Below the pieces are notes generated by a model. That model made no database searches and had not been told where the DNA came from. It worked only from the letters and a program-made list of their open reading frames with translations. From Thioclava sp. GXIMD2076 (GTDB taxonomy: Bacteria; Pseudomonadota; Alphaproteobacteria; Rhodobacterales; Rhodobacteraceae), in contig NZ_CP149933.1 of the NCBI RefSeq assembly GCF_037949795.1, positions 186,001 through 250,000 on the forward strand: a stretch of 64,000 nucleotides of DNA, read 5' to 3'. Below, piece after piece: positions 393 through 16,309 of the stretch (within the stretch, counting starts at the first letter, position 1; each line of letters opens with the position of its first letter). The position numbers and the translations under genes are program-made.

Positions 393-1475
393 TTATTCAG
401 CAGCTTCCAGAACGTCCTGTCGGCATTCCATCAGCGGCTGGATCTTCTGGCCGAACATATCGAGCCCCTCGAGGAAATCATCGAAGGTCAGCATCAGCCC
501 TTTCACACCCGGCACCGAGGCCGCCTCGTCGAGCATCCGCGCACAGCTTTCATAGGAGCCCACGATCGTGCCCATATTGAAGTTCACCGCCCCCTCGGGG
601 AGGTTGATATGCGCGGCGGTCGAGTTCTCGCCGGCGAAGCTGTCCTTGGCGCCCTCGACGCCCATATAGGCCAGCGCCTCCATATCGGCGCCATCATGAT
701 AGAGCTTCCATTTGGCCATGGCCTTCTCGTCGGTCTCGTCCGAGATCACCATCATCAGGATATAGGCCCCGACATCGCGGCCGGTCTTCTCGGCGGCTTC
801 CAACAGGCGCTCGCAGGTGGGGGCAAAGGCTTTGGGCGTATTGATGCCAAGGCCGTTCACGAAGGAATAGTTGGTGTAGTTCGACGAGAACTCCATCCCG
901 CGCGGCGACTGGCCTGCGGCCACAATCTCTATCGGGGCCGAGGGGGCCGGCGACATCTTACAATCGTCCATGGTGAAATACTCGCCCTTGAAATCGGAGG
1001 AGCCGGTTTCCCACAGCTCTTTCAGGACCTTCACATATTCGGTCGCATAGTCATAGCGGTAGCCGAAATACTCGTTGCCCGGCCAGATCCCCATCTGGGT
1101 ATATTCCGACGGCGCCCAGCCGGTCACGATATTGATCCCGAACCGGCCCGGCGCGATGGAATCGACGGTGCTGGCCATGCGCGCCACGATCGCTGGCGGC
1201 AGGGTCAGGATGGCGGAGGAGGCGAAGAGCTTGATCTTGGTGGTCACGGCGGCAAGCCCCGCCATCAGCGTGAAGCTTTCCAGACCGTGATCCCAGAACT
1301 CGCTCTCGCCGCCGAACCCGCGCAGCTTGATCATCGACAGGGCAAAATCGAAGCCATAGCTTTCGGCCTTCTGCACGATCTGCTTGTTCAGCTCGAAGCT
1401 GGGCATGTATTGCGGCGAGGTCTTCGAGATGAGCCAGCCATTGTTGTTGATCGGGGTGAAGACGCCGATATCCAT
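393..1475 (-). CDS. rutA: RutA-type FMN-dependent pyrimidine monooxygenase
   Basis: Luciferase-like flavin monooxygenase of 360 residues, close in length and sequence to E. coli RutA. RutA uses FMNH2 and O2 to cleave the N3-C4 amide bond of uracil or thymine. Visible RutA signatures include GWLIS near residue 13, [39 protein letters not shown] and NIVTGW. The ATG at 1475 is chosen because it has an AGGAG ribosome-binding site and the protein then begins where RutA homology begins. No rutB, rutC, rutD, rutE or rutG lies nearby; rutF is 5 kb away on the other strand. A GntR gene lies upstream on the same strand, and an operator-like motif sits 24 bases before the start. The substrate may therefore be a related cyclic imide rather than uracil. 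Confidence 0.88.
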
Positions 1476-1498
1476 GGAAATTCTCCTGTTGGTATGAC

Positions 1499-1510
1499 TT
1501 TGTCCGTACC
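1499..1510 (-). promoter_or_regulatory. Candidate GntR operator upstream of rutA
   Basis: The 10-mer TTGTCCGTAC reads on the plus strand at 1500-1509, just ahead of the rutA start. The same 10-mer occurs in reverse orientation at 2406-2415, between gntR and the divergent small-subunit/amidase genes. An identical motif in front of both arms flanking a GntR gene suggests its binding site. This rests on sequence repetition only. Confidence 0.4.
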
Positions 1511-1627
1511 TTGGCAGGAGGAGGCGCTCTTGACTAAAGCATAATTTTGAGGGGCTCGGTTCAAAAAACTCAGCCACCCGGATAACAGGCCTGCGATGGA
1601 GCGCAGGCCGGCCCCCATGCGCCCCGT

Positions 1628-2365
1628 TCAGGTCGAGGACAGCGTCGAGGAATAGGAGAATTTCTCGGCCGGATAATATTGCACCGCATATTCCAGAAGC
1701 CTGCGCCCCGAGCCGTAATAGCGCCGCGTCATCTTCACGCAATAGCTGCCCGCCGGATAACCCAGATGGGTGGCGATCTCCTCGCTCATAGGCACCGCGC
1801 GGATATCCTGCCGGATCTCTTTTACACGGTCGCCACCCGCAGCCTCGATCAGGGTGAAAAGCGCGATATTGAGGCTGTCATGACCGTCGAGGACCGGTTT
1901 GTGGCTGGGCGAGATATAGGCCTCGTTATAGCACAGGACCGTCTCCTCGCCCTGATTATATCTTTTGCCTGCAATATGATAGAACCTCTTCCCCGAACGC
2001 ACCCCCATCTCGGTGGCTAAGGCTCCGCGCGCGGTGACCTCGGCGCGTTCGGAAATCTGCCAGATCGTTTCGCGCGCAAAGTCGAAGAGCTCGGCACGCG
2101 AGTTCGCAGAGAATCGTGCGCGCCAGTCGGAGGGCGGCTCCTCGACCCGGGTGCCCACGCCCTTGCGCGCCGATAGAAGCCCGCGCTGGCGTAGCTCGCC
2201 GATCGCCTGACGTACGGTCTGGCGCGACACCCCGAAACCTGCCGCCAGTTCGGTTTCTGTCGGCAGGAGCGAGCCCACCGGATAGGTGCCGGCGCTGATT
2301 TCGCCGTGCAGATGCCGTGCGAGCTGCTGATAGAGCGGTGCGGTTTCCTCGAATTTCAGCGCCAT
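1628..2365 (-). CDS. GntR/HutC-family transcriptional regulator
   Basis: 245-residue regulator. Residues about 8-75 form a GntR winged helix ([42 protein letters not shown]). The rest is a UTRA-type effector domain typical of the HutC subfamily, ending in the usual [12 protein letters not shown] strand. The ATG at 2365 follows a GGGGAAGAG ribosome-binding site. The gene lies between rutA, transcribed in the same direction, and a divergent amidase unit, so it probably controls both. UTRA domains commonly sense the substrate or an intermediate of the adjacent pathway, here presumably a heterocycle or amide. Confidence 0.85.
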
Positions 2366-2405
2366 CTCTTCCCCTTGACCCCGATGCCAAAAATAATCTT
2401 CATAA

Positions 2406-2415
2406 GTACGGACAA
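2406..2415 (+). promoter_or_regulatory. Candidate GntR operator between gntR and amidase unit
   Basis: GTACGGACAA here is the exact reverse complement of the 10-mer found before rutA at 1500-1509. It sits 41 bases upstream of the gntR start and 65 bases before the start of the divergent small gene, suitable for joint control of both. A one-mismatch relative, GTGCGGACA, occurs at 4384-4392 before the LysR gene. Confidence 0.4.
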
Positions 2416-2479
2416 TCGGCAGGGTCAATAGACCTGCCATCCTCTTCTGTCGGACCAGTGTCATATAAGCGGAGCTTTC

Positions 2480-2659
2480 ATGCCATCCCCAAATCTGCAA
2501 TTGATCGGCCGCCCAGCCTCGCCAGAGGAGCAGGCGCTTCAGGATATCGAGCGCGAAAGGCTCCGGCAGGGGGTTATGGACCACCCGCTGATCCGCCAGC
2601 AGCCCGAGGGTGCTCAGACCGCTCTGGTCGCGGTGGATCCGCAAGGGGGGGCGCTATGA
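2480..2659 (+). CDS. Short coupled ORF, possible small subunit of the following amidase
   Basis: A 59-residue open frame (begins MPSPNLQLIG, ends VAVDPQGGAL) starts at an ATG preceded by GGAG at 7 bases spacing. It ends in a TGA that overlaps the amidase ATG by 4 bases, the arrangement of translationally coupled subunits. It has a charged, probably helical middle (PEEQALQDIERERLRQ) and no signal or membrane segment. Small proteins of the AtzG/DUF4089 type sit in the same place before the partner amidase AtzE, and a second such pair occurs in this window at 14658-16309. Homology to AtzG is not evident from sequence alone, so the subunit role is inferred from gene arrangement. Confidence 0.6.
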   Translation: MPSPNLQLIGRPASPEEQALQDIERERLRQGVMDHPLIRQQPEGAQTALVAVDPQGGAL

Positions 2660-4008
2660 CCGCGCAGACAATCGCGCAGCAGATGGGCGCACGGCTCGAG
2701 GCCGGTGATGCGGAAGCGGTTACCCGAGCCGCCCTGAAACTCGCGCAGACCGAAGACACAATCTTCGTGCGCACCGAGCCCGAGGCCGCCCTCGCGCAGG
2801 CGCGGACTTGTGATGTGCTCGCGGCAAGGGGGCAGGCCATGGGGCCGCTGCATGGTGTGACGCTGGCGCATAAGGATATGTTCGACCGTGCGGGGCAGGT
2901 GACAGGCTTTGGCGCCCATCCCGATGCGGCGCGTGCGGCGACAGGCACTTCGACCGTTCTGGCGCGGCTCGATGCGGCGGGCCAAGTCGATCTGGGACGG
3001 CTCACGATGTCGGAATTCGCCATGTCGCCCACGGGGCAGAACGCTCATTGGGGTGTGGCGCGCAACCCGCGTATTCCGGGGGCCGTGCCGGGCGGCTCGT
3101 CCTCGGGGTCGGGAGCGGCGATTGCCGCGGGCCTCGTGCGCGCGGCTTTGGGCTCCGATACGGGCGGCTCGATCCGTCTGCCTGCGGCTTGTTGCGGGGT
3201 GGTGGGCTTCAAACCCACCAAGGGCCGCGTGCCGGTGACCGGGGTGATGCCGCTCAGCTATACGCTCGATTGCGTGGGACCACTGGCCGCAAGTGTCGCC
3301 GAGGCGCGTCTTGTGCTGTCAATCATTTCGGGCGCCGACGGGATCGATCCGGTCTGCGCGGACCGGCCCGCGCCCCGCGCCTATGCCCGCAGCCCGCAAA
3401 AGCTGCGGATCGGGTTTGATGCCAGTGCCTATACGGCGGGGATCGCACCAGAGATGGCCGAGGGCTTGCGCCGGTTGAAAGCGCTCCTGCAGGATCTTGG
3501 GCATGGGATCGTGGACCTCGATCTCTCACTCCTTGATACGCTGGGGGAGGCGTCCAATGTGATTGCGATGTCGGAGGCAGCCGCCGTCCATGCCGACCGT
3601 CTGGCCGTCGCCGCGGAGCGCTACGGCCCGCAAGTCCGCTCGCGGCTTCTGCAGGCCGAGGCGATGCCGGGCTATGCCTATGTCCGGGCGATGCAGATCC
3701 GGCTGAAGGCGCAGCAGCAGGTGAACCAAGAGGTATTCGGTAAGGTTGATCTGTTCATTCTGCCGACACTTATCGGCCTGCCGCCCATGGCCGATGCGGT
3801 CAATATCAGCGCCGATCCGAAAATGGCCTCGCTGATCGGGTCTATGGGAAAATACACCCGCCCGCTCAATCTTCTGGGGCTGCCCGCGCTCAGCCTGCCG
3901 GGCCATGAGGCCGAGGGCCTCCCTTATTCGGTGCAGATCGTAGGACCTGCATGGTCCGAGGATCTGATCGCCGATCTTGGTCAGCAGGTAGAAACAGTGC
4001 GCGCATAA
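2656..4008 (+). CDS. Amidase-signature (AS) family hydrolase
   Basis: 450-residue amidase with the complete AS catalytic triad: Lys73 in LAHKDMFD, the cis-Ser in GGSSSGSG (residues 146-153) and the nucleophile Ser172 in DTGGSIRLP. The family hydrolyses linear amides, ureido acids and carboxybiurets (GatA, AtzE, AtzF and others). The ATG at 2656 is chosen because it overlaps the stop of the preceding small gene and a GGGGGG run lies just upstream. The open frame itself continues further upstream without a credible start. It is divergent from gntR, shares the candidate operator, and is closed by a terminator at 4023-4060. It could replace RutB by hydrolysing the ureido product of RutA, but that is inference. 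Confidence 0.85.
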   Translation: MTAQTIAQQMGARLEAGDAEAVTRAALKLAQTEDTIFVRTEPEAALAQARTCDVLAARGQAMGPLHGVTLAHKDMFDRAGQVTGFGAHPDAARAATGTSTVLARLDAAGQVDLGRLTMSEFAMSPTGQNAHWGVARNPRIPGAVPGGSSSGSGAAIAAGLVRAALGSDTGGSIRLPAACCGVVGFKPTKGRVPVTGVMPLSYTLDCVGPLAASVAEARLVLSIISGADGIDPVCADRPAPRAYARSPQKLRIGFDASAYTAGIAPEMAEGLRRLKALLQDLGHGIVDLDLSLLDTLGEASNVIAMSEAAAVHADRLAVAAERYGPQVRSRLLQAEAMPGYAYVRAMQIRLKAQQQVNQEVFGKVDLFILPTLIGLPPMADAVNISADPKMASLIGSMGKYTRPLNLLGLPALSLPGHEAEGLPYSVQIVGPAWSEDLIADLGQQVETVRA

Positions 4009-4022
4009 TACAGAGTGTCTTT

Positions 4023-4060
4023 GATGGCCCCGCAGACCGTCTCTCGCGGGGCCATCGTAT
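4023..4060 (+). terminator. Terminator after amidase gene
   Basis: An 11-bp perfect stem (4023-4033 with 4046-4056) with a 12-base loop is followed by GTATTTT. It lies 15 bases after the amidase stop codon, so transcription of the small-gene/amidase unit probably ends here. Confidence 0.7.
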
Positions 4061-4351
4061 TTTGCTCCTGCTGATCTCTGGTCATGGACCCTTCCGTCCA
4101 TCGATGCGAGAACTTCTATGCGGCGCGCGGGGAGCGGAGACTAGGAAGAGTGTCGCCGTGAGTGTCGGGTTTGACCGGAAAAAGCGATGTAGCGGCGCTT
4201 TAAGGCCTCGGGTTCAAGAGTGCCGATATCACCCGATGCAACAGACCCCCGAAACATGCTGCGGCCGATGGAAACCGCGTGTAGGCAAAGCTGACTCTGC
4301 CCTGAATTGAGCCGCTACACCTGAAAAACTGCGTAATTACGCGGCCAACTA
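4061..4351. other. Intergenic DNA without recognisable gene
   Basis: About 290 bases between the amidase terminator and the operator-like palindromes before the LysR gene. Open frames crossing it lack ribosome-binding sites and family motifs. Nothing else was recognised here. Confidence 0.5.
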
Positions 4352-4369: not shown

Positions 4370-4382
4370 CGGTTGTTCTTAT

Positions 4383-4400
4383 TGTGCGGACATATGCACA
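4383..4400. promoter_or_regulatory. Inverted repeat TGTGC-N8-GCACA, candidate LysR box
   Basis: TGTGC and GCACA are separated by 8 bases, 51 bases before the lysR start. The T-rich/A-rich dyad spacing fits a LysR-type autoregulatory site. The internal GTGCGGACA also resembles the 10-mer operator motif near gntR. Confidence 0.35.
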
Positions 4401-5497: not shown

Positions 5498-6787
5498 ATG
5501 TCCCGAGACCCGTTGAGCCTGATGACCGTAACCGAAGATGTGGCAAGCGGATCGCGTCTGATCCGCGATATCGCCGAGGATTGTCTTGATCTGATCTCGC
5601 TGGGCGAGCCGCGGATCGGGGCATTCTCACATCTGTCACCCGCCGATATCCGGCGCGAGGCGGACCGGCTGGATGGCGCGCCCAAAGGTCCGTTGAGCGG
5701 CCTGACGGTCGCTGTGAAGGATGTGATTGCCACGAAGGATATGCCCACGGGCTTTGCCAATGCCCGCTACGAAGGAGTGCGGACGGGGTGGGATGCGCCT
5801 TGCGTCGATGTGCTCCGGCAGGCGGGCGCGCTGATTCTCGGCAAGACGGTCACCACCGAATTCGCCGCCACCGCCCGCGGCGGCAAGACCCGTGATCCGC
5901 GCGATCCCGCGCGTTCTCCGGGTGGCTCGTCCTCGGGGTCGGCCGCGGCGGTTGCGGCAGGGTTCTGTTCGGTGGCCATCGGCACACAGACCGGCGGCTC
6001 GACCATCCGGCCCGCCTCCTATTGCGGGGTCTGGGGCTGGAAGCCCTCGTGGCATGCCATCTCTCGCGAGGGGCTGAAGCAGTTCTCGGTCACGCTCGAC
6101 ACGGTCGGTTTCTACGCCCGCCATGCCGAGGATCTGGAGGCGCTGGCCGAGGTTTACCGCCTCGACCCCGCACCGCCCGTCTCCAGCCTCAGCGGACTAC
6201 GGATCGGCCTGTGCAGGACACCCGTCTGGGACAGGGTCGACGCGCCCATGCGCGAGGCATTGGACGAGGCGGCCAAGCGGTTACGGCTGGAAGGGGCGGA
6301 GGTGATCTCCTTCGAGCTGCCGCGCAGTTTCGACACGCTTCCCGCGACCCATGGCAAGATTCTCGCGCGCGAGGGTAGCACGTCTTTCCTCAACGAGGCG
6401 ATGGCGCAGGGCGAGGCGCTGCACGAGCAGTTCCGCACGATGGTCGCGACCCGTGGCGGGCTGACTGCCGCCGAGCTGCGCCGCGCCTATACCGAGGCCG
6501 ATACCGCCCGCGCCGTCTTTGACGAGATCATGGACGGGTTCGATGCGGTCATCGCCCCCTCCGCCACCGGCGAGCCGCCCCTCGGGCAGGCGCATACCGG
6601 TGATGCCATCATGAATTCCTTCTGGACGCTCCTGCATGTGCCGGTCGTGTCGGTGCCCGGTCTGCAATCTCCCGCCGGCCTGCCACTTGGCATCTCCTTC
6701 ATCGGCCAGCGCTATACCGACCGCCGTCTGCTGAACATCGCCAGACTGGCGACCGAAGTGTTCCAGGCCGATCTCGCCTTTTCCTAA
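5498..6787 (+). CDS. Amidase-signature family hydrolase, second copy
   Basis: 429-residue AS amidase with Lys74 (VAVKDVI), GGSSSGSA (residues 142-149) and nucleophile Ser168 in TQTGGSTIRP. It keeps an unusual WGWKPSW where most relatives have G-KPT-G, so its substrate pocket probably differs from the other two amidases in this locus. A TTTGGAGG ribosome-binding site at 5481-5488 supports the ATG at 5498. It has no tiny upstream partner gene, unlike the other two. It precedes rutF by 35 bases and is probably co-transcribed with it. Confidence 0.85.
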   Translation: MSRDPLSLMTVTEDVASGSRLIRDIAEDCLDLISLGEPRIGAFSHLSPADIRREADRLDGAPKGPLSGLTVAVKDVIATKDMPTGFANARYEGVRTGWDAPCVDVLRQAGALILGKTVTTEFAATARGGKTRDPRDPARSPGGSSSGSAAAVAAGFCSVAIGTQTGGSTIRPASYCGVWGWKPSWHAISREGLKQFSVTLDTVGFYARHAEDLEALAEVYRLDPAPPVSSLSGLRIGLCRTPVWDRVDAPMREALDEAAKRLRLEGAEVISFELPRSFDTLPATHGKILAREGSTSFLNEAMAQGEALHEQFRTMVATRGGLTAAELRRAYTEADTARAVFDEIMDGFDAVIAPSATGEPPLGQAHTGDAIMNSFWTLLHVPVVSVPGLQSPAGLPLGISFIGQRYTDRRLLNIARLATEVFQADLAFS

Positions 6788-6822: not shown

Positions 6823-7356
6823 ATGTCCGATTTGGCCGATAGTCCAGCCGCAACCGACCTGCCGATCATCGAGCTGGCCGACAAGCAATCCTTCCGTGAC
6901 GGGATGTCCTGCCTTGTGGGGGCGGTCAATATCGTCACCACCGATGGTCCCGGAGGGCGCGCAGGCTTCACCGCGACCGCCGTCTGTTCGGTGACCGACG
7001 AGCCGCCGACGCTTCTGGTCTGCGTGAACCGCTCCAGCTCGGCCGCCCCCGCCTTCCTGCAAAACGACAGTATCTGCGTCAACACGGTCGGCCCGAAACA
7101 TGCCGAGATCGCCATGCTCTTCGGCGGCAAGACCCCGATGCAGGAGCGCTTTGCCGATGTGGCATGGCGCAAGAGTGCCAGGACCGGCGCGCCGGTCCTC
7201 GACGAGACAGTCGCGACCTTCGATTGCAAGGTCTCCGCCCGGCAGGTGGTGGGCACCCATGAGGTGATCTTCTGTCAGGTCGTCGAGGCGCGCTCGGATG
7301 CAACCTCTCCCGCTTCCGCCTATTTCGGGCGCAAATTCCACGAGTTGAGCGCATGA
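6823..7356 (+). CDS. rutF: RutF-type FMN reductase
   Basis: 177-residue flavin reductase of the split-barrel family, very close to E. coli RutF. Matching blocks include FRDGMSC, GAVNIVTTDGPGGRAGFTA, AVCSVTDEPPTLLVCVNR, CVNT, LFGGKTPM, RFADV and VGTHEVIFC. RutF supplies reduced FMN from NADH to RutA, so this is the expected partner of the monooxygenase at 393-1475, although the two lie on opposite strands about 5 kb apart. It overlaps the next gene by 4 bases (ATGA). An N-terminal extension of about 15 residues compared with E. coli is present. Confidence 0.88.
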   Translation: MSDLADSPAATDLPIIELADKQSFRDGMSCLVGAVNIVTTDGPGGRAGFTATAVCSVTDEPPTLLVCVNRSSSAAPAFLQNDSICVNTVGPKHAEIAMLFGGKTPMQERFADVAWRKSARTGAPVLDETVATFDCKVSARQVVGTHEVIFCQVVEARSDATSPASAYFGRKFHELSA

Positions 7357-7928
7357 TTATCACCGCACCTCCCGCCCCTGCAGGGCTCGCTGCCACTCGT
7401 GCATTGGCCGCCTCGCGCCCCGTGATCGTCACCGGCTGTCAGGGCGGGGCCTTCGTGCTGATTGCCGCGCATGACGCCGATGCAAACTGGATCAACATCA
7501 TGGCCCGCGATGCGCGTGGCCTTGTGGGTATGGTGATGCCGCTCGGGCATGCGCAGGGTCTGGGGCTGGAGCTGCAGCCCCAACGCGGGGGCCGCAACGC
7601 GCCGCTCTATACCCAGTCGATCGAGGCGACTATCGGGATCTCCACGGGCATCTCGGCCAAGGACCGTGCCTGCACGATTGCGGCGGCCACAACCGGCGCG
7701 CCCGATGCGGTGGTCAGCCCGGGCCATGTCTTCCCGCAGGTGCCCAATGGCTGCGCGGACGGGCAGGCCGATATCGCGCTCCGTCTTCTGGGTGATGCGG
7801 GGCTCGCGCACTTGGGCGTGATCTGCACGATCCTCGATAGTAAGGGGCGCGATGCTGGGCCCGAGACCGTAGCCGCGCTGGCTGCGGATCTCGACGCCGA
7901 GATTATTGCTGCAAGCGACCTCATGTGA
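7353..7928 (+). CDS. RibB (DHBP synthase)-like protein lacking the acidic loop
   Basis: 191 residues with the fold signature of 3,4-dihydroxy-2-butanone-4-phosphate synthase: ARDARGLVGMVMP, IEATIGISTGISAKDRACTI, SPGHVFPQ and LGVICTI align with the RibB core. The acidic metal-binding loop that reads DDEDRENEGD in true RibB is replaced by a stretch with no matching acidic cluster (GCQGGAFVLIAAHDADAN). The GGHTEA motif is also not conserved. It is therefore unlikely to make riboflavin precursors. It is coupled to rutF by a 4-base overlap, which ties it to the flavin-dependent ring-opening pathway. Its function is unknown; action on a ring-opened intermediate is possible. Confidence 0.7.
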   Translation: MIITAPPAPAGLAATRALAASRPVIVTGCQGGAFVLIAAHDADANWINIMARDARGLVGMVMPLGHAQGLGLELQPQRGGRNAPLYTQSIEATIGISTGISAKDRACTIAAATTGAPDAVVSPGHVFPQVPNGCADGQADIALRLLGDAGLAHLGVICTILDSKGRDAGPETVAALAADLDAEIIAASDLM

Positions 7929-7989: not shown

Positions 7990-8646
7990 ATGGACAAGCC
8001 GCTTGTTGTGATGATCAACCCCAACAGCTCGACTGTCACAACGGCCCGGATGGTTCATATCGGGCAGGGGATGCTCGGGGATCGGGCGATTGCCCTCGAG
8101 GGACGCACGGCCAGCACCGGCCCCGCGATGCTGACCACGCCGGAGACCCTCACCGCCTGCGAGGCACAGGTTCTGGCGATGGCCGAGGCGTTGCCGCCCC
8201 GTGCGGGGATCATCGTCTCGGCCTTTGGTGATCCGGCAATGGACAGGCTCCGCGCGCAGCATGATGGCCCCGTTACGGGGATCGGCGAGGCGAGTTTTCT
8301 GGAGGCGGGGCGTGACGGACGGCGTTTCGGGATTGCCACCACAACGCCCGCGCTCGATGCGGCCATCCGTGCGCGGGTTGCCGCCTCGGGAAGGGCCGCG
8401 CAGCTGAGCGGGATCAGCTATACCGGAGGCGATCCCTTTGTTCTGACCGCCGATCCGCAGGCGCTTTTTGAGGCCCTCAAACGCGCGGCCGAGGCGGAGG
8501 CGGCAAAGGGCGCGGAGGCGGTCATCATAGGCGGCGGACCCTTGGCGCAGGTGGCGCAGCGGCTGGAGGCCGAGACGGGGCTGCCGATCATTGCCCCGAT
8601 CCCCGCTGCCATCCGCCACATGGTCCGCCTGCTAGCAGGCGGCTAG
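7990..8646 (+). CDS. Asp/Glu/hydantoin racemase-family protein without catalytic cysteines
   Basis: 218 residues beginning with the hydantoin-racemase signature VVMINPNSS. The two catalytic cysteines expected in this cofactor-independent racemase family are absent. The first motif (usually C-F-G-D-P) reads SAFGDPAMD, and the second (usually G-C-G-G/A-M) reads GGGPLA. The protein is thus not a standard two-base racemase; relatives in this superfamily also include decarboxylases and isomerases. It follows the ribB-like gene by 61 bases on the same strand. Its last 15 bases overlap the 3' end of the convergent dppD-like gene. Confidence 0.8.
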   Translation: MDKPLVVMINPNSSTVTTARMVHIGQGMLGDRAIALEGRTASTGPAMLTTPETLTACEAQVLAMAEALPPRAGIIVSAFGDPAMDRLRAQHDGPVTGIGEASFLEAGRDGRRFGIATTTPALDAAIRARVAASGRAAQLSGISYTGGDPFVLTADPQALFEALKRAAEAEAAKGAEAVIIGGGPLAQVAQRLEAETGLPIIAPIPAAIRHMVRLLAGG

Positions 8647-9627
8647 ACCGCCGTCTGCCAGCACACAGGCCACGCGTCTGCGGGGGCCGAGCTCCACGAC
8701 CGGCGGACGCGCGGCATGGCATTCGGCGCGCGCATGCGGACAGCGCGGCGCGAAGGAGCAGGCCGAGGGCCGCGCCTCGAGCGCGGGCGGTGCCCCCGGA
8801 ATGGCATGGAGCCGCGTGCCCTTTTCCACATCATGCAGATTGGCCGCCAGCAGACCTTGGGTATAGGGATGGCGCGGGTTCTTGATGACCTCGAGCGTCG
8901 TGCCTTCCTCGACGATCTCGCCCGCATACATCACCGCGATCCGCTCGCTGACCTCGACCGCCACGCCGATATCATGGGTCACGAAAATCACGCCCATATC
9001 GAAATCGCGCTGCAATTCGCGCAACAGCAGCAGGATCTGGATCTGCACCGTGGCATCGAGCGCCGTGGTGGGCTCGTCGGCCAGAAGCAGTTTGGGGCGG
9101 CAGGCCAGTGCCAGCGCGATCATCACCCGCTGGCGCATCCCCCCCGACAGCTCATGAGGGTAGTTCGACATCCGCCGCTCGGGCGAGGGGATGCGCACGC
9201 GCTTGAGCATATCGAGCGCGATCTCGCGCGCCTCGGGTTTGGATACTTTCTTGTGGCGGCGCACGGCCTCGGCGATCTGCACGCCCACTGTGTAAACGGG
9301 GTCCAGCGCCAGGCCGGGGTCCTGGAAGATCATCGACACATCCTGCCCGCGGAAGGCTTGCAGCGCACGGCCCTTCAGCGCGCCCACATCCTGCCCGTTG
9401 ACCGAGATCCCGCCCTCGATCTGGGTCCGCTTGGGCGGCAGAAGCTGCAAGAGCGTGCGCAGCGTCACCGATTTTCCCGATCCGGATTCCCCCAAAAGCG
9501 CCAGCGTCTCCCCCTGTTCGAGCCGTAAGCTGAGATCGGTGATCGCATGGATGGTCCTGTCGGTCCTGAAGCGCACATTCAGCGTCTCGATATCCACAAG
9601 CGCGGTCTTGTCCGCAAGATCCTTCAT
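8632..9627 (-). CDS. Dpp/Opp-type ABC importer ATP-binding subunit (DppD-like)
   Basis: 331-residue ATPase of the oligopeptide/dipeptide/nickel importer family. Visible motifs are Walker [10 protein letters not shown]-loop FQDP, signature LSGGMRQR and Walker [13 protein letters not shown], plus the family's C-terminal cysteine-containing region ([15 protein letters not shown]) that binds an iron-sulphur cluster in some members. The ATG at 9627 overlaps the stop of the partner ATPase gene by 4 bases, showing translational coupling. It is the last gene of a five-gene minus-strand transport operon. Confidence 0.9.
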
Positions 9628-10697
9628 TCCGCAGCCTCCCATGTGCCGGCTTTCGAATGGCCCGAATGCACATCCAGCAGATGGCAGGCGGCCAGATGGT
9701 CGGGCGCGTCTTTCATCGGTGCCAGCGCGGGCACCTTTTTCGCGCAGATCGTCTCGGCAAAGGCGCAGCGCGTATGGAAGCGGCAGCCCGAGGGCGGGTT
9801 GATCGGATTGGGCGGATCGCCCGCAAGGGGCGGGGCCTCGGTGCGGTTTTCGGGATCCATCGAGGGCATCGCGGAAAACAGCGAGCGCGTATAGGGATGG
9901 GCCTGATTGGTATAGAGCCGGTCCACCGGCGCCACCTCGACCACCTCGCCCAGATACATCACCAGGACGCGGTCCGAGATATAGCGCACCACATTGAGGT
10001 CATGGCTGATGAAAATATAGGTCAGGCCCAGATCGCGCCGCAGATCCGAAAGGAGGTTGAGCACCTGCGCCTCGACCGATTTGTCGAGCGCCGAGACCGC
10101 CTCGTCGAGGATCACCAGACGCGGGGCCATCGCCAAGGCCCGCGCGATATTCACCCGCTGGCGCTGCCCGCCCGACAGTTCATGCGGATAGCGACCGGCA
10201 AAGCGCGCAGGGTCGAGCCCCACACGGTGCATCATCTCCTGCGCCTTGGACATCGGGTCCTTGATCCCCGCCTGACGCGCACCGAAAGCCACGCTATCGG
10301 CAATCGTCATGCGCGGATTGAGCGAGGCATAGCTGTCCTGGAACACCATCTGCACCCCGCGCCGCAGATCGCGCAGCGATAGCCCTTCGCCAAGGCCATC
10401 GCCATCGAAGGTGATCTCGCCCGCGTCCTTGGGCGTGAGGCCGATCAGGAGCCGCGCAGTGGTGGATTTGCCGCAACCGGATTCGCCCACGATGCCCAGC
10501 GTCTCGCCCTTGCGGACCTCGAAGGAGACGCCATCGACGGCTTGCACATGGGCTTGGGTCCGGCCGAGCACGCCGCCCTTGATCGGGAAATGCTTGCGCA
10601 GGTCCTTCACCGTCATCAGCGCCTGTTGCGGACCGCCACGGTCGGGTAGGGCATGCGGGTCGGTGCCCGTGTTTTCTACGAAATCAATCACGGACAT
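9624..10697 (-). CDS. Dpp/Opp-type ABC importer ATP-binding subunit (DppF-like)
   Basis: 357-residue ATPase with Walker A GESGCGKST, Q-loop FQDSYASLNPRMTI, signature LSGGQRQR, Walker B LVILDEAVSALD and the C-terminal CRFHTRC...C cysteine cluster. YASLNPR is characteristic of OppF/DppF-type subunits. It pairs with the DppD-like ATPase downstream and its start overlaps the upstream permease gene by 14 bases. An N-terminal extension of about 28 residues precedes the ABC domain. Confidence 0.9.
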   Translation of the reverse strand: MSVIDFVENTGTDPHALPDRGGPQQALMTVKDLRKHFPIKGGVLGRTQAHVQAVDGVSFEVRKGETLGIVGESGCGKSTTARLLIGLTPKDAGEITFDGDGLGEGLSLRDLRRGVQMVFQDSYASLNPRMTIADSVAFGARQAGIKDPMSKAQEMMHRVGLDPARFAGRYPHELSGGQRQRVNIARALAMAPRLVILDEAVSALDKSVEAQVLNLLSDLRRDLGLTYIFISHDLNVVRYISDRVLVMYLGEVVEVAPVDRLYTNQAHPYTRSLFSAMPSMDPENRTEAPPLAGDPPNPINPPSGCRFHTRCAFAETICAKKVPALAPMKDAPDHLAACHLLDVHSGHSKAGTWEAAE

Positions 10698-11571
10698 TCA
10701 TCGCACTCCTTAGCCCGTCGCTCAGCAGGTTCAGGCAGAGCGAGGTCACAAAGATCATGACGCCGGGCAGGGCCGAGAGCCACGGGTTGATATAGATGGC
10801 CGAGCGGAGCGTGTTCAGCATCAGCCCCCATTCGGCCTGCGGCGGCTTTACCCCGATCCCGAGGAACGACAGCCCCGCCGCGAGGATCATGCAGACGCTG
10901 GTCAGCGAGGTTGCGTAGACGAAGATTGGCGAGAGCACATTGCCCAGCACATGCACGCGGATCACGGTGAGCGCGCTGGCGCCCGTGGCGCGGGCCGCAT
11001 CGATATAGTCGAGCGAGCGCACACCGGAGGTCACCGCTTCGGCCACACGGGTGATCGGCGGGATGAAAACGATGGTGAGCGAGACGAGGCTGTTTGTCAC
11101 GCCCGCGCCCAGCGAGCCCGAGATGGCGATGGCCAAGAGCACCGAGGGGAAGGCAAAGAACACATCGACCACCCGCATGATGGCGGTGTTCACGCGCCCG
11201 CCCGCATAGCCTGCGGTCACCCCCAGAGCGCCACCTATGAAGAAGGCCAGCACCACCGGCACCAGCCCCATGAACAGCGAGAGCCGTCCGCCATAGATCA
11301 GGCGTGCCAGCATATCGCGGCCCTGTTCGTCGGTGCCAAGCAGATGGCCCTCGGTGCCGATGGGTTTGAGGCGTGCGATCATCGAACCTTTATACGGATC
11401 CTGCAGCCCCAGCCATGGCGCAAGCACTGCCGCGAGGATCAGCGCCAGAATGACGGCGAGGCAGACGACGGATACGGGATCACGGCGCAGGCGGCGCAGC
11501 ACGCCCGCCCAGTAGCCATTGCCCTTGGTGGAGACGGGGGCGATATCGGAGGCGCTTTCGGCAAGGCTCAT
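10684..11571 (-). CDS. Dpp/Opp-type ABC importer permease (DppC-like)
   Basis: 295-residue inner-membrane permease. It has an N-terminal transmembrane segment, the DppC hallmark LGTDEQGRDMLARLIYGGRLSL, and the EAA coupling motif near RVAEAVTSGVRSLDYIDAARATGAS. About six membrane segments are visible. It lies 3 bases downstream of the DppB-like gene and overlaps the DppF-like gene, so the operon is tightly packed. Confidence 0.9.
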   Translation of the reverse strand: MSLAESASDIAPVSTKGNGYWAGVLRRLRRDPVSVVCLAVILALILAAVLAPWLGLQDPYKGSMIARLKPIGTEGHLLGTDEQGRDMLARLIYGGRLSLFMGLVPVVLAFFIGGALGVTAGYAGGRVNTAIMRVVDVFFAFPSVLLAIAISGSLGAGVTNSLVSLTIVFIPPITRVAEAVTSGVRSLDYIDAARATGASALTVIRVHVLGNVLSPIFVYATSLTSVCMILAAGLSFLGIGVKPPQAEWGLMLNTLRSAIYINPWLSALPGVMIFVTSLCLNLLSDGLRSAMNVRD

Positions 11572-11574
11572 GGA

Positions 11575-12528
11575 TCAGCCCCTTTTGATACGCGGGTCGA
11601 TCGCGGCCTGCGCCACATCCACCACAAGGTTTGAAATCACGAAGAACATCGCCAGTACAAGGATGGTGCCCTGCAACAGCGGCAGATCCTGCTGGAAGAT
11701 CGCGTTTGACAGAAGGAACCCCGAGCCCGGCCAGTTGAAGACAGTCTCGATCAGGATCGAGCCGCCCAAGAGCTGCGCGATCTGCAGGCCCATCACCGAG
11801 AGCGCGGTGGCGGCGGCATTGCGCGCCACATGGCACAGCACATCGCCACGGCTCATCCCCTTGGCATAGAGCGCCTGCACGAATTCCATCGACAGGATGT
11901 CACCGGCGAGCGCGCGGATGGTGCGTGCGATGATCCCGATCGGCACCACCGAGAGCGTGATGGCGGGCAGGATAAGATAGCGGATATGCTCGAAATCCCA
12001 CGCCCAGTGCTGCGAGCCCCCGGGGCCTGCGCCAATTGCCGGCAGCCAGCCCAGCGTGACCGAGAAGATGATCACCAGCACGATCCCCAGCCAGTAATTG
12101 GGCACCGAGACACCGGCAATCGCGACCCCCGTCACCAGCCGGTCCACCCAAGTGTCGCGGAAATAACCCGCCGTGAAGCCCAGAATTGTGCCGATGGGAA
12201 AGGCGATGATCGCCGCCGCAACCGCCAGCAGGAGCGAGTTCTTCACCGCGCCGAAGACCTCGGAGGCCACGGGCCGTCCTGAGGCGATGGAATTGCCCAT
12301 ATCACCATGCACCAGCTTCGCCGCCCAGATCGCATATTGCACCGGAAGCGGCTTATCGAGCCCATAGGCAGCGCGCATCGCGGCCTGTTCCTCGGCTGTG
12401 GCCTCTGCCGGCATGATCGAGGTCAGCGGGTCACCCGGCGCGATCTGCACCAGAAGGAAACAGATCACCGACACACCGAAGGCCACGGGGATCACAAGCA
12501 AAAGCCTGCGGAGGATATAGCTGAACAT
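11575..12528 (-). CDS. Dpp/Opp-type ABC importer permease (DppB-like)
   Basis: 317-residue inner-membrane permease starting MFSYILRRLLLVIPVAFGVS, the standard DppB/OppB N-terminus. LVQIAPGDPL follows, and the EAA-like coupling region EFVQALYAKGMSRGDVLCHVARNA is near residue 220. ETVFNWPGSGFLL is also typical of the family. It forms the heterodimeric channel with the DppC-like protein. Confidence 0.9.
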   Translation of the reverse strand: MFSYILRRLLLVIPVAFGVSVICFLLVQIAPGDPLTSIMPAEATAEEQAAMRAAYGLDKPLPVQYAIWAAKLVHGDMGNSIASGRPVASEVFGAVKNSLLLAVAAAIIAFPIGTILGFTAGYFRDTWVDRLVTGVAIAGVSVPNYWLGIVLVIIFSVTLGWLPAIGAGPGGSQHWAWDFEHIRYLILPAITLSVVPIGIIARTIRALAGDILSMEFVQALYAKGMSRGDVLCHVARNAAATALSVMGLQIAQLLGGSILIETVFNWPGSGFLLSNAIFQQDLPLLQGTILVLAMFFVISNLVVDVAQAAIDPRIKRG

Positions 12529-12606
12529 GGCTGGGGTCTTTCATTAGGAAAGCCTTGGCAAAACACGCAAAGGCAGTGCCGCGCCCCCGCAGGGGCGCGG
12601 CATCGG

Positions 12607-14241
12607 TCAGGCCGATTTCATGGTGATGCTGGAGAAGTTCTGGAACCAGTTCTGCGCCTGCACGAAGCCCGTCACCGTGGGTTTCATCGCGCGGGGGGCC
12701 ACATCATGGGCCACCATCAGGAACAGCGCCTCGTTGACGAATTTCTCATGCGTCTTGCGCAGCACATCATCCTGCGCGGCACTGTCGAAGGTGGTGCGGA
12801 TCTCGGAGAAGAGCGCATCCATCTCGGGGTCGCTATAATGGCCCCAATTGGTGCCGTTGGGCGCGATCAGTGCCGAGGACAGGTGACGGATCAGACCGGT
12901 GAAGGGGTCTTGGGTGAAATAGCTGAAATTGATCGACTGCGCTCCCTGACAGCCCGGATCGGCAGCACCCGCCCGCCACAGGTTGATCATCTGGTTCCAC
13001 TCGACCACGACAAACTCGACATCGATCCCCACATCCGCGAGGTTCTGCTGCATATATTCGTTCATCGGCAAGGGCAGCATCTGGCCCGAGCCCGAGGGCG
13101 AGATCAGCGCCTTCAGCTTCACGCGGTTGGTGTCATCGAAGCCCGCCTCTTTCAGGAGCGCCTTGGCCGCCTCGGGGTCGTATTTCACCTCGAAGGTCGG
13201 GTTGCCGAACCATTGCGAGGAGGGCGGCAGGAAGCCCTTGGCCTCGATCATCAGCCCACCCAGAAGCTGCTTCAGCCCTGCGCGGTCGATGGCGAGGTTG
13301 GCGGCCTTGCGCACACGGATATCGTTCCACGGGCTGTTCTCGAGGCGCGAGAGGTGCCATGTCCAGTTATGCGGGTAGGCGTTCGAGGAAACGGTGAAAC
13401 CATTGGCCTGCATCGCGGGGATCGTGTCGGGCGAGGGCGCCTCGATCCAGTCGACCTGCCCCGACATCAGCGCCGCCGAGCGGGCATTCGGCTCGGGCAG
13501 CGGGATCAGGATCAGCTTATCGAGCTGGGCCATGCGGGTATTGTCCCAGTAATCGGGGTTCGGCACCAGCTCGGCGCGTTCGCGGGGCGCGAAACTTGCC
13601 AGCTTCCACGGGCCCGTGCCCGAGGGCTGATAGGCGACCTTTTCCCAGTCCTTGCCCTGCGCTTCCCAGTTTGCGGGCGACGAATAGACGATCCATGCCA
13701 GCTGGTAGGGCAGGGTCGCGTCGGGTTCCTTGGTGGTGATCTCCACCGTCATCGGGTCGATGACCTTATAGCTCGCAACAGCCGGAATCCGCGATTTGCC
13801 CTGTGCCGATTGGCGCGGATCATATTGCGCGCACTCGCTATCCAGAAGCTTGTCGAGGTTCCACACGACCGCATCGGCGTTGAACTCGGACCCGTCATGG
13901 AATTTCACGCCCTCGCGCAGCTTGAAGGTCCATTTGGTCTTGTCGGTATCGTCGGTCGTCCATTCGGTCGCCAGACCCGGGATCAGGCCCGAGGGCTTGT
14001 CGGCCGAGGTCAGGTCCCAGTTGATCAGTGCATCATAGACCGTATAGCCCATGAAGCGCATGCCTTCGCCGCCCTGATCGGTCTGGCCGGTGGTCAGCGG
14101 AATATCCGCCGCCGTCATCCCGATGCGCAGCGTCCCGCCACCGCCTGCCGTCTGGGCCATAACGGCTCCGGTCCAGGGCGCCACGGCAGAAAGCGCCAGC
14201 GCGGAACCGGCGAGTTTCAAAAGGGAACGACGTTTAAGCAA
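12607..14241 (-). CDS. Tat-exported ABC importer solute-binding protein (DppA/OppA family)
   Basis: 544-residue family 5 extracellular solute-binding protein, first gene of the transporter operon. The N-terminus KRRSLLKLAG followed by a hydrophobic stretch and VMAQT looks like a twin-arginine signal with cleavage near residue 29. Family features include GMRFMGYTVYDALI, LREGVKFHDGSEFNADAVVWNLD and the late block TFDSAAQDD. Such proteins bind peptides, but also opines, nickel chelates and many small N-compounds. The context of amidases and Rut proteins suggests a heterocyclic or amide substrate. It is divergent from the AtzG-like/amidase pair. Confidence 0.88.
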   Translation of the reverse strand: MLKRRSLLKLAGSALALSAVAPWTGAVMAQTAGGGGTLRIGMTAADIPLTTGQTDQGGEGMRFMGYTVYDALINWDLTSADKPSGLIPGLATEWTTDDTDKTKWTFKLREGVKFHDGSEFNADAVVWNLDKLLDSECAQYDPRQSAQGKSRIPAVASYKVIDPMTVEITTKEPDATLPYQLAWIVYSSPANWEAQGKDWEKVAYQPSGTGPWKLASFAPRERAELVPNPDYWDNTRMAQLDKLILIPLPEPNARSAALMSGQVDWIEAPSPDTIPAMQANGFTVSSNAYPHNWTWHLSRLENSPWNDIRVRKAANLAIDRAGLKQLLGGLMIEAKGFLPPSSQWFGNPTFEVKYDPEAAKALLKEAGFDDTNRVKLKALISPSGSGQMLPLPMNEYMQQNLADVGIDVEFVVVEWNQMINLWRAGAADPGCQGAQSINFSYFTQDPFTGLIRHLSSALIAPNGTNWGHYSDPEMDALFSEIRTTFDSAAQDDVLRKTHEKFVNEALFLMVAHDVAPRAMKPTVTGFVQAQNWFQNFSSITMKSA

Positions 14242-14657
14242 GGGAATCTTCCTCTCTGTTGACGGGCCGATAGTGCCCGATCGAAGCGTGGCTTCTTTGA
14301 TTGCCGGATGCGCGCGGCGCGGACCGGATGGGGCGGGTCAATTGGGCTGACCTTCTGCAAGCACGCTAAGCGGGCTTGTGATCGGGCGGGAAGGGATGGA
14401 GCGGCCAAAACGCGGGATAGCCTTCAGCTGCCTGTTGCTTACGCATGGATTTGATCAAACGATTAATTTTAAGTCATCATCATGCGGGAAAAGCGCGAAT
14501 CCACTTTGCGCTCGACATCTGGCACCGCTACAATCAGGGTTCTTGCAAGGATGAGATTTTCTCATTTGTATCAGCAGGTTCACCACGAGAGGGTGGGGGG
14601 CGCAGATGCGCTTTCCTGTCAGTCCCCCAGTCTGTCAGGCTCCCAGAAGGATAGACA
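14242..14657. other. Divergent promoter region with small inverted repeats
   Basis: 416 bases between the transporter operon and the AtzG-like/amidase pair. It contains the palindrome TTTGATCAAA at 14450-14459 and the inverted repeat ATGAGA-TTT-TCTCAT at 14551-14565, either of which could be a regulator site. The TTGTCCGTAC motif seen near gntR is not present. An open frame at 14445-14654 lacks a ribosome-binding site and a family match and is not called a gene. Confidence 0.45.
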
Positions 14658-14903
14658 ATGCCCCAGACTGCCGCTCCCCCACCCGAAGATATGTCCCGAG
14701 ATGAGGCTCTGCGGCGTGAGTATGAAACAGCCCTCGCGCTCCATAAGTTTGTCATCGAGCCCGAGCGGGACGCCGTGATGTTCGAAAGCTTCAAAGCCTA
14801 TCGCGCGCTGATGGCCCGCCTCGATGCCGCCCTTCCGCAGCACCTCGAACCGGGCCCCGTCTGGACGCCTGCACCTGTGGTCGCATCCGTGGAGAAGGCA
14901 TAA
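14658..14903 (+). CDS. AtzG-like small amidase subunit (DUF4089-type)
   Basis: 81-residue protein ending in LPQHLEPGPVWTPAPV. The pattern of one or two helices followed by a Pro-rich tail with P-x-V-x-x-P resembles AtzG, the small partner of 1-carboxybiuret hydrolase AtzE. An AGAAGGA ribosome-binding site precedes the ATG. The stop TAA overlaps the ATG of the following amidase by one base (TAATG), so the two are translationally coupled. In AtzEG the small protein is needed to assemble the amidase. The assignment rests on length, tail pattern and gene position. Confidence 0.65.
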   Translation: MPQTAAPPPEDMSRDEALRREYETALALHKFVIEPERDAVMFESFKAYRALMARLDAALPQHLEPGPVWTPAPVVASVEKA

Positions 14904-16309
14904 TGACCAACACCACCCTGACGCGGCTTCCCGAGGCGATGCCCGATCTCACGCAGGCCTCGGCCGATCTGCAGGCGCGCCGGATCTCGGCGGTCGAGCT
15001 GCTGGAGCAAGCGCTTGGCCGGATCGGGGCGCTGGACTCCAAGCTGCATGCCTTCATCGCGCTGGCCGAGCCGCGCGCCCGGGCCGCAGCTCTCAATGCC
15101 GATCTGCGGATCGCGCGGGGCGAGGCGGGGCCGCTGACCGGCATCCCCTATGCGCTCAAGGATATCTACGATGTGGCGGGGATGCGCACGACCGCACATT
15201 CCAAACTGCGTCTCGATCATATGGCGGAAGAGAATAGTGATGCCGCCGACCGGCTTGATGCGGCAGGTATGGTGTTTCTGGGCAAGCTCTCGACCCATGA
15301 ATTCGCGCGTGGCGGTCCGACCGATCTGCTGCCTTTCCCCAATGCGAAGAATGCCTGGAATACCGGGCATTTTGCGGGTGGCTCGTCCTCGGGCTCGGGG
15401 GTTGCGGTGGCCTCGGGCATGGTGGGCCTCGCGATGGGCACCGATACCGGCGGCTCGATCCGGCTGCCTGCGGCCTGCAACGGGATCGTGGGGCTGAAGC
15501 CCACCTATGGCCGCCTCTCGCGGCGCGGGATCGTGCCGCTGTCGTTCAGTATGGACCATGCCGGCCCGCTGACCCGCACCGTGGCCGATTGCGCGCTTGC
15601 AATGCAGGCGCTTGCGGGCCACGACGCAAATGATGCGGCCTCGAGCCGCCAGCCGGTGCCCGATTACAGCGCCGGTCTGTCGGGCGATCTGAAAGGGCTG
15701 ACCATCGGTCGTGCCCGCGAATTCGACGCGCTGGCCGGTGTGGGACCGGAACAAATGGCGGCGCTTGACGCGGTGGAGGCCGTGCTCGAGGCACTTGGCG
15801 CGCGGATCATCGAGGTCAGCCTGCCCGAACGCGAGCTTCTGGATGCGATGACATGGGCGATCATTCAGGCCGAAGGCGTGTCGATCCATGGCAAGGATCT
15901 GCGCGAGCGTCCCGAGGAGTATGGCCGCACCACCCGCGAGCGGTTGATGATGGGCGCCTTTGCCACCGGCGGTCACTATGTCACCGCCCAGCGGCTGCGC
16001 CCGATCCTGAGCGCCGAGGTGACCAAGGTGCTCACCGGCGCGGATGCGATCCTGTGTTCGCCGATGGGCGGGCCTGCGCCTCTTGTCGCGGAGGTCGATG
16101 ACCTGCCGTGGCGCAAACAGGCTCCGCTGACCAGTGCTTTCAACGGCACGGGCCATCCCGCGCTTGTGCTGCCTGCGGGCTTTGGTGCAAACGGATTGCC
16201 GCTTTCGGCCCAATTCGTGGGGCGGCCTTTCGACGAGGCGATGCTCCTGCGGATCGGCCATGCTTATGAGCAGATGGCAGGCTGGGTTGCCAAACGTCCC
16301 GCTTATTGA
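14903..16309 (+). CDS. Amidase-signature hydrolase, AtzE-like large subunit
   Basis: 468-residue AS amidase with Lys86 (YALKDIYDV), GGSSSGSG (159-166) and nucleophile Ser185 in DTGGSIRLPA. The sequence around NGIVGLKPTYGRLSRRGIVPLSFSMDHAGP is typical of the GatA/AtzE branch. Pairing with an AtzG-like gene makes an AtzEG-type heteromeric ureide or carboxybiuret-type hydrolase the closest analogue. It is divergent from the DppABCDF-like transporter and is probably co-regulated with it. It is the third AS amidase in the first 16 kb. Confidence 0.85.
   Translation: MTNTTLTRLPEAMPDLTQASADLQARRISAVELLEQALGRIGALDSKLHAFIALAEPRARAAALNADLRIARGEAGPLTGIPYALKDIYDVAGMRTTAHSKLRLDHMAEENSDAADRLDAAGMVFLGKLSTHEFARGGPTDLLPFPNAKNAWNTGHFAGGSSSGSGVAVASGMVGLAMGTDTGGSIRLPAACNGIVGLKPTYGRLSRRGIVPLSFSMDHAGPLTRTVADCALAMQALAGHDANDAASSRQPVPDYSAGLSGDLKGLTIGRAREFDALAGVGPEQMAALDAVEAVLEALGARIIEVSLPERELLDAMTWAIIQAEGVSIHGKDLRERPEEYGRTTRERLMMGAFATGGHYVTAQRLRPILSAEVTKVLTGADAILCSPMGGPAPLVAEVDDLPWRKQAPLTSAFNGTGHPALVLPAGFGANGLPLSAQFVGRPFDEAMLLRIGHAYEQMAGWVAKRPAY

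What the first reader, a model, noticed from the sequence alone, without database searches (positions are those of the whole stretch)
393..16309. Possible undescribed Rut-like N-heterocycle degradation locus with AS amidases in place of RutB
Close RutA and RutF homologues are present, but rutB, rutC, rutD, rutE and rutG are not. The same locus carries three amidase-signature enzymes, two with tiny coupled partner genes. It also has a RibB-like protein, a cysteine-less racemase-family protein, a full Dpp-type importer, and GntR and LysR regulators. RutA opens a pyrimidine-dione ring to a ureido product; AS amidases such as AtzE and AtzF hydrolyse ureides and carboxybiurets. A route RutA/RutF, then AS amidases, then further steps, for uracil-like or other cyclic imide compounds, is a reasonable inference that no standard pathway explains.
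Basis: partly seen in the sequence, partly recalled or inferred. Interest (0 to 1): 0.8.

Follow-up and report, generated by a model that had tools for sequence, protein, structure and literature searches.

The report
Rut-like ring-opening regulon with amidases
A probably plasmid-borne gene set in a bacterium looks like a variant of the pathway that opens uracil-like rings, with a different class of amide-cutting enzymes in place of the usual one, its own DNA switch, and a worn-down vitamin B2 enzyme kept for an unknown new job.

Summary
The genes are as described: RutA, RutF-like, three amidase-signature (AS) amidases, two overlapping tiny partner genes, RibB-like, racemase-like, Dpp importer, GntR, LysR; RutB-E give no hit in the window. 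The genome has no RutB, RutC or RutE over cut-off but has a reductive uracil locus.

Comparison makes a system of the core. RutA copies with Ser at E. coli position 105, like the window's, have an AS amidase within 4 kb in 17 of 25 cases; copies with Thr, 0 of 12. GntR-RutA-AS amidase clusters occur in other Rhodobacterales and a Rhizobium; three hold RutE, pointing to malonic semialdehyde. A palindrome near ATGTCCGGACAT precedes rutA, gntR/small partner-amidase 1 and lysR-amidase 2-rutF-ribB-like; one precedes lysR of a second, chromosomal RutA locus. None marks Dpp or amidase 3 here, so those may be separate cargo.

The RibB-like protein keeps the fold but lacks the acidic motif in 32 of 32 relatives of its group. 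Substrate and its role are inferred. New variant of the Rut pathway.

The parts
393..1475 (-). rutA1: RutA-family FMN monooxygenase (Ser at E. coli position 105)
   Evidence: TIGR03612 623.2 bits vs cut-off 498.3; 542 bits to E. coli RutA structures; O2-pocket residues conserved, and outside the canonical RutA group in the tree
1500..1511 (.). palindromic site TTGTCCGTACCT, about 25 bp before rutA1
   Evidence: 13.1 bits, matrix trained on other loci
1628..2365 (-). gntR: GntR/UTRA regulator, proposed to bind the palindrome
   Evidence: Pfam GntR and UTRA; a GntR homologue of over 200 bits lies within 4 kb of RutA in 8 of 32 stretches compared
2404..2415 (.). palindromic site AAGTACGGACAA between gntR and g1
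   Evidence: 15.9 bits
2480..2659 (+). g1: 59-codon partner gene overlapping amidase 1 (AtzG-like in position, not by model)
   Evidence: similar tiny frames before amidase 1 in G188, G258 and Palleronia
2656..4008 (+). amidase 1 (AS family, AtzE-like)
   Evidence: 298 bits to the AtzE model, cut-off 461; triad in place, groups with amidase 1 of five relatives
4382..4393 (.). palindromic site TTGTGCGGACAT, about 60-70 bp before lysR
   Evidence: 12.8 bits
4452..5375 (+). lysR (GcvA-like)
   Evidence: 54-62% identical in four relatives and 57% in the second own locus
5498..6787 (+). amidase 2 (AS family, nearest solved relative malonamidase E2)
   Evidence: 191 bits to 1OCK; triad in place
6823..7356 (+). 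rutF-like flavin reductase
   Evidence: TIGR03615 223.3 bits, cut-off 254.75
7353..7928 (+). ribB-like: DHBP-synthase fold without the acidic motif of RibB
7990..8646 (+). racemase-like protein lacking both family cysteines (membership of the pathway uncertain)
   Evidence: beside Dpp homologues in Haematobacter and Paracoccus
8632..14160 (-). Dpp-type ABC importer, five genes (membership uncertain)
   Evidence: beside RutA1 and amidase 1 in G188, away from RutA in three plasmid stretches
14658..14903 (+). g3: 81-codon partner gene overlapping amidase 3 (membership uncertain)
14903..16309 (+). amidase 3 (AS family, AtzE-like; membership uncertain)
   Evidence: 296.2 bits to the AtzE model, cut-off 461; triad in place

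Best explanation
The core (rutA1, gntR, g1-amidase 1, lysR-amidase 2-rutF-ribB-like) is a variant Rut pathway under one GntR switch. The RutF-like protein supplies reduced FMN; RutA1 opens a uracil-type cyclic amide with a flavin N5-peroxide; the ureido or amide product is cut by AS amidases (amidase 1 with its tiny partner, amidase 2) instead of RutB; the three-carbon end is malonic semialdehyde. GntR represses from a palindrome near ATGTCCGGACAT until a pathway compound releases it. In this genome further parts (RutA2, another AS amidase, isochorismatase-fold and nitrilase-fold hydrolases, an importer) are on the chromosome with one such palindrome. The RibB-like protein is a DHBP-synthase paralogue that lost its chemistry and serves the flavin system, most likely by binding a flavin or a ring fragment. 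Shown: gene content, homology, conserved linkage, palindrome positions, loss of the RibB motif. Inferred: substrate class, order of steps, GntR as the binder, role of RibB-like. Substrate class about 0.5; that RutA1, the RutF-like protein, the AS amidases and GntR form one catabolic unit about 0.8.
For: RutA1 keeps L65, N134, V136, F224 and has Ser at 105; PMC7662398 (passages read) gives these as the O2 pocket and reports about 80% activity for T105S. RutA1 and RutA2 stand in one cluster with gntR, AS amidases, isochorismatase-fold, nitrilase-fold, lysR, importer, rutF and ribB-like in G042 and G153; the own genome holds most of that set in two loci (the MFS3 and second flavin reductase genes were not found there). 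RibB-like is in 4 of 345 family genomes, all 4 among the 10 of 345 with RutA (P about 1.2e-5 with own genome left out). Ser-105 copies: AS amidase 17 of 25, RutC 0 of 25; Thr-105 copies: 0 of 12 and 8 of 12 (Fisher 7e-5 and 1.3e-5). RutE lies in the cluster in Palleronia (299 bits, cut-off 152), G188 and G258 (73% and 66% identical). Palindromes at three promoters of the window, 0.024 expected in the intergenic bases scanned, and a 15.6-bit one before lysR of the chromosomal locus; 0 of 7 canonical rut loci, 0 of 3 lone Dpp stretches, 0 of 3 RutA2-only loci have one.
Against: No RutE or RutC over cut-off in this genome, so the proposed product has no identified consumer here. The genome has a reductive pyrimidine locus, so uracil needs no second route. 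8 of 25 Ser-105 copies have no AS amidase within 4 kb, and one of the 17 is beside an amidase that lost its triad (L143). In G239 only a 69-residue match to amidase 2 remains beside rutF and an asparaginase gene follows ribB-like. G239 and G258 have gntR and palindromes at their RutA1 loci but none at their RutA2-only loci L148 and L146, so the shared switch of the two halves is not general. Novosphingobium (L160) has RutA1 and AS amidases with neither gntR hit nor palindrome. The palindrome was first noticed by eye in the window and the 12.5-bit line was set after seeing the sites, so the P value (2e-6) is optimistic; 6 of the 8 GntR-RutA1 loci supplied training sites. Nine of the stretches (L169-L172, L175-L178 and L180 among them) were not scanned for it.
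Confidence: 0.58

Rival explanations
1. The pathway is RutA-based but its substrate is not a simple pyrimidine: a hydantoin, pterin, alloxazine or other cyclic amide with several amide bonds, which would explain the number of amidases and the RibB fold. (The odds given for the explanations overlap and need not add to one.)
For: Up to three AS amidases plus isochorismatase-fold and nitrilase-fold hydrolases in one set; reductive uracil locus already present; G239 has a rutABCD locus (RutB 368.2 bits, just below its cut-off 377.95; RutC and RutD over theirs) besides the non-canonical ones; dihydropyrimidinase and racemase-family genes about 10 kb or more beyond the G239 locus.
Against: RutE in three sister clusters fits a plain C3 product as from uracil. 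RutA1 is 64-65% identical to E. coli RutA with the named pocket residues kept.
Confidence: 0.4
2. The 16-kb stretch is a patchwork of unrelated nitrogen-scavenging modules landed on a large plasmid, without one pathway.
For: Dpp with or without the racemase-like gene lies away from RutA in three plasmid stretches; TniB and TniQ genes lie upstream in the sister plasmid; the RibB-like gene is in 1 of 16 genomes of the genus; no palindrome before Dpp or amidase 3.
Against: Core genes recur together in several genera and share a palindrome.
Confidence: 0.15
3. The RibB-like protein still feeds flavin synthesis, as rib genes do beside luxG in luminous bacteria, and is not part of the degradation chemistry. 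(Compatible with the main explanation.)
For: Next to the flavin reductase in 5 of 5 RibB-like loci read; G188 has, beside its flavin reductase, a RibB passing the RibB model (192.7 bits, cut-off 177.45); lux precedent in PMC10049116 (passages).
Against: The DRENEGD motif is gone in 32 of 32 RibB-like clusters, and 25 of 86 columns invariant in 27 ordinary RibB rows differ in all 8 RibB-like rows compared.
Confidence: 0.15

Closest known systems
Rut pathway (rutABCDEFG, E. coli b1012 operon)
   Same: RutA-family monooxygenase and RutF-like reductase; RutE in three sister clusters
   Different: No RutB, RutC, RutD or RutE in the window; AS amidases instead; Ser at 105; a GntR gene and palindrome that 7 canonical loci lack
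AtzE-AtzG amidase pair of cyanuric acid catabolism
   Same: AS amidase overlapping a tiny upstream gene. PMC6219798 (abstract, section 14 and passages read; [quoted passage not shown]
   Different: Below the AtzE cut-off (298 and 296.2 vs 461); tiny proteins match no Pfam family over cut-off. AtzD, AtzH and AtzF were not searched for
Malonamidase E2
   Same: Nearest solved structure to amidase 2 (191 bits); triad residues in place
   Different: Gene setting not compared; substrate of amidase 2 untested
RibB (3,4-dihydroxy-2-butanone 4-phosphate synthase)
   Same: Fold (Foldseek TM 0.87 to 3LRJ)
   Different: Acidic motif absent in the 32 members of the RibB-like group
lux-rib arrangement and lumazine protein of Photobacterium
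   Same: A flavin-monooxygenase locus with a flavin reductase next to a rib gene, and a rib-derived paralogue (PMC10049116, passages)
   Different: Another rib enzyme (RibB, not riboflavin synthase), no light; an analogy, not kinship
Hydantoin/allantoin racemase family
   Same: Pfam Asp_Glu_race
   Different: Both cysteines replaced in the 120 rows listed; 40.5 bits to the nearest solved racemase

Membership tests
Rut pathway | RutA over the NCBIfam cut-off | tested here: met
   623.2 vs 498.3 bits
Rut pathway | RutF over the NCBIfam cut-off | tested here: not met
   223.3 vs 254.75 bits
Rut pathway | RutB in locus or genome | tested here: not met
   No tblastn hit in the window; best in genome 54.9 vs 377.95 bits
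Rut pathway | RutC and RutE in the genome | tested here: not met
   RutC 66.1 vs 169.1 bits; RutE no hit at E<=1e-5
Rut pathway | RutG permease | tested here: inconclusive
   Two genes of the broad Pfam family in the genome, none in the window; RutG model not run
Rut pathway | Uracil or thymine opened to ureidoacrylate | not testable with these tools
   Needs enzyme assay
Reductive pyrimidine pathway (elsewhere in the genome) | PreA, dihydropyrimidinase and carbamoylase-family hydrolase together | tested here: met
   726.1 vs 335, 600.3 vs 393.25 and 692.8 vs 452 bits at one locus; the PreT-like subunit matches only general glutamate-synthase-type models below cut-off
AtzE | Score over the AtzE cut-off | tested here: not met
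   Amidase 1 298, amidase 3 296.2 vs 461
Amidase signature family | Lys and two Ser of the triad | tested here: met
   All three window amidases
DHBP synthase (RibB) | Score over TIGR00506 and acidic motif DRENEGD (its catalytic role is recalled) | tested here: not met
   62.4 vs 177.45; motif absent
DHBP synthase (RibB) | Fold | tested here: met
   AlphaFold2 mean pLDDT 85.6, Foldseek E 8.1e-16 to RibB
Asp/Glu/hydantoin racemase | Two catalytic cysteines (recalled) | tested here: not met
   Ala and Gly stand at the two places in 120 of 120 rows listed

The most novel reading that the evidence does not exclude
A hitherto unrecognised branch of flavin-N5 ring-opening catabolism: two RutA paralogues act in sequence on a compound with more than one cyclic amide, AS amidases replace RutB, and a RibB paralogue that has lost phosphate-sugar chemistry has become a new component of the flavin monooxygenase system, either a flavin carrier or a lyase for a ring fragment.
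Probability: 0.25. Interest if true: 0.82.

Novelty: new variant of a known kind. Interest (0 to 1): 0.6.

Why it matters
RutA is a model enzyme for flavin N5-peroxide chemistry, but its known metabolic setting is one operon. A recurrent second setting, with other hydrolases, a defined candidate regulator site and a changed RibB paralogue, gives direct tests of what else RutA-type chemistry does, which compounds Alphaproteobacteria use as nitrogen sources, and how a vitamin-pathway enzyme is reused. The palindrome gives a handle for finding the inducer without knowing the substrate.

Tried and rejected
Riboflavin or lumichrome breakdown as the known pathway: the published gene set (PMC12746152, abstract and first of six parts read) uses a P450, hydrolases and a thiamin-dependent decarboxylase, and the text holds no 'RutA' (count). 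Nicotinate route in Aspergillus (PMC9304392): its two hits are in the reference list, one of them the Spanish word 'ruta'. Racemase as a decayed enzyme: rejected, the missing cysteines are a subfamily trait. RibB-like as a pseudogene: not preferred, since open frames are kept in five loci and dN/dS to the sister plasmid is 0.26, though that rests on 12 substitutions. A 481-residue frame of L010 scanned at first was the wrong frame of an MFS transporter. Left out: one RutA fragment at a contig edge (G273) of the 19 matches, and 57 of 63 plasmid records (six were taken by choice). Nine library searches listed no paper that I recognised as describing this cluster; most listed papers were not opened; the nearest is the remark on Bordetella and Achromobacter in PMC6219798.
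Full report
What is there. The window is part of a 693-kb contig of a 4.15-Mb genome in five contigs; its bases 300-17000 are 98.9% identical over their whole length to plasmid p2 of Thioclava sp. 'Guangxiensis' (CP155823.1), whose annotation gives the gene starts. RutA passes its NCBIfam cut-off, the RutF-like protein does not quite. RutB, RutC, RutD and RutE give no tblastn hit in the 64 kb.

The genome. No RutB or RutC over cut-off and no RutE were found; RutD was not searched, and two permeases of RutG's broad family exist. Five isochorismatase-fold genes exist, none over the RutB cut-off. A reductive pyrimidine locus (PreA, PreT-like, RutR-like below cut-off, carbamoylase-family hydrolase, dihydropyrimidinase) is on contig C1. 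A second RutA copy (RutA2, 55% identical, 477.5 bits against 498.3) lies at C1:2197388 with an AS amidase 44% identical to amidase 2, a LysR 57% identical to the window's, an isochorismatase-fold gene, a nitrilase-fold gene and an importer.

Conserved set. Besides the own copy, RibB-like proteins at 48-51% identity are in G042, G153 and G239: 4 of 345 genomes of the family in all (next is G137 at 42%, a protein with a GTP cyclohydrolase II domain). RutA at E<=1e-80 is in 10 of 345; all 4 are among the 10. In G042 and G153 one cluster holds flavin reductase, AS amidase, RutA1, GntR, RutA2, MFS, isochorismatase-fold, nitrilase-fold, MFS, LysR, importer, amidase 2, RutF, RibB-like; Pseudooceanicola spongiae shows the right-hand part, its left side lies beyond the stretch held. 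In G239 RutA1, GntR, LysR, RutF and RibB-like are together, a 69-residue match to amidase 2 remains and an asparaginase gene follows RibB-like. A related form, GntR-RutA1 with three AS amidases, an Rbs-type importer and MFS, is in G188, G258, Palleronia sp. LCG004 and Rhizobium rhododendri (importer and MFS families); RutE is beside amidase 1 in the first three (299 bits against 152 for Palleronia) and was not hit in the R. rhododendri stretch. Novosphingobium resinovorum has RutA1, two AS amidases and MFS without a GntR hit. In the class as sampled, RutA at E<=1e-100 occurs in 9 of 385 genomes.

Two kinds of RutA. A tree of 19 proteins separates a canonical group (E. coli and three copies in rutABCD settings, 88/87) from RutA1 and RutA2 (RutA2 100/100, RutA1 weaker). 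In that set position 105 is Thr in the canonical group and Ser in the others; L65, N134, V136 and F224 are kept in RutA1 and RutA2. PMC7662398 (passages read) gives these as the O2 pocket and reports about 80% activity for T105S. Over 37 RutA copies in 32 stretches, Thr copies: RutB 7, RutC 8, AS amidase 0 of 12; Ser copies: RutB 1 (67.8 bits, beside a RutA only 41% identical to E. coli's), RutC 0, AS amidase 17 of 25. By stretch the AS-amidase figures are 14 of 20 and 0 of 12 (my count; Fisher 1.1e-4). Copies in one stretch are not independent, related genomes share history, and the six plasmid loci were my choice.

Regulation. Intergenic stretches next to gntR share a palindrome near ATGTCCGGACAT. 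A matrix from 13 sites of six other loci finds in the window, at 12.5 bits or more, 1500, 2404 and 4382, at the promoters of rutA1, gntR/g1 and lysR, plus one distant hit at 37831; 0.024 hits were expected in the 1424 intergenic bases and 0.66 in the window. In the own chromosomal locus a 15.6-bit site precedes lysR; a 13.2-bit one lies inside that gene. Sites also precede lysR in G042, G153 and P. spongiae, dpp in G188, and the Rbs-type importer in G188, G258, Palleronia and R. rhododendri. Canonical rut loci 0 of 7, lone Dpp stretches 0 of 3, RutA2-only loci 0 of 3 (two of them, L148 and L146, in genomes that have gntR and sites elsewhere), the reductive locus none, Novosphingobium none. The window sites were seen by eye before the matrix was made and the threshold was set afterwards; six of eight GntR-RutA1 loci gave training sites, the window and R. 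rhododendri did not. That GntR is the binder is inferred from position.

Amidases. All three window amidases keep the triad residues. Amidase 2 and the chromosomal amidase form neighbouring clades; amidase 1 groups with amidase 1 of five relatives; amidase 3 has no close partner among the 26 compared. Amidase 2 is nearest to malonamidase E2 among solved structures. Tiny frames resembling g1 precede amidase 1 in G188, G258 and Palleronia; in R. rhododendri another short frame overlaps its start.

RibB-like. Model confidence is good (mean pLDDT 85.6) and the fold is RibB. Of 86 columns invariant in 27 ordinary RibB rows, 25 are kept and 25 changed in all 8 RibB-like rows. In the profile search, 32 clusters stand at 195 bits or more, then a gap to 177; none of the 32 has DRENEGD (120 of 3714 hits were listed, and only the 8000 best candidates scored). 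Other degenerate RibB forms appear further down the list. The 8 rows form one clade, 99/97. G188 has a RibB with a largely kept motif (ARENECD; 17 of the 25 columns kept) beside its flavin reductase, on the ordinary side of the tree with a long branch, so RibB genes may have joined RutF-like genes twice. The lux operons, with a rib gene beside luxG and a lumazine protein thought to derive from riboflavin synthase (PMC10049116, passages), are an analogy.

Reading. A uracil-type ring-opening pathway with AS amidases and malonic semialdehyde as end point fits most of this; it does not explain the number of amidases or the presence of a reductive uracil locus, so a different cyclic amide stays open at about 0.4. 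The Dpp importer, racemase-like gene and amidase 3 may be neighbours only.

Noticed in passing
CP155823.1 212398-218952 (L153) and L009:7294-9693: TniB and TniQ genes lie about 5-7 kb from rutA and a chemotaxis receptor gene is next to it in the sister plasmid; the own genome has a long frame at the matching place.
   Followed up: no
L143:9697-10926: An amidase 2 homologue near RutA1 in G258 has lost all three triad residues.
   Followed up: partly
L037:11782-11988 and 13203-14198; L176:102-1178 and from 1232: Remnant match to amidase 2 and a full asparaginase gene in G239; a RutA-asparaginase pair also in G423.
   Followed up: partly
window 1628-4008: gntR, g1 and amidase 1 show 2 substitutions against CP155823.1 while rutA next to them shows 25; perhaps a recombination boundary.
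   Followed up: no
L163, L164, L165: Dpp importer, with amidase and Rid-family genes in two and a racemase-like gene in two, on plasmids of Haematobacter, Palleronia and Paracoccus away from RutA.
   Followed up: partly
L041:784-1938: A RibBA-type protein in G137 with an altered acidic motif, no RutA hit in the 15 kb read.
   Followed up: no
window 37831-37842: A 13.8-bit palindrome far from the locus.
   Followed up: no
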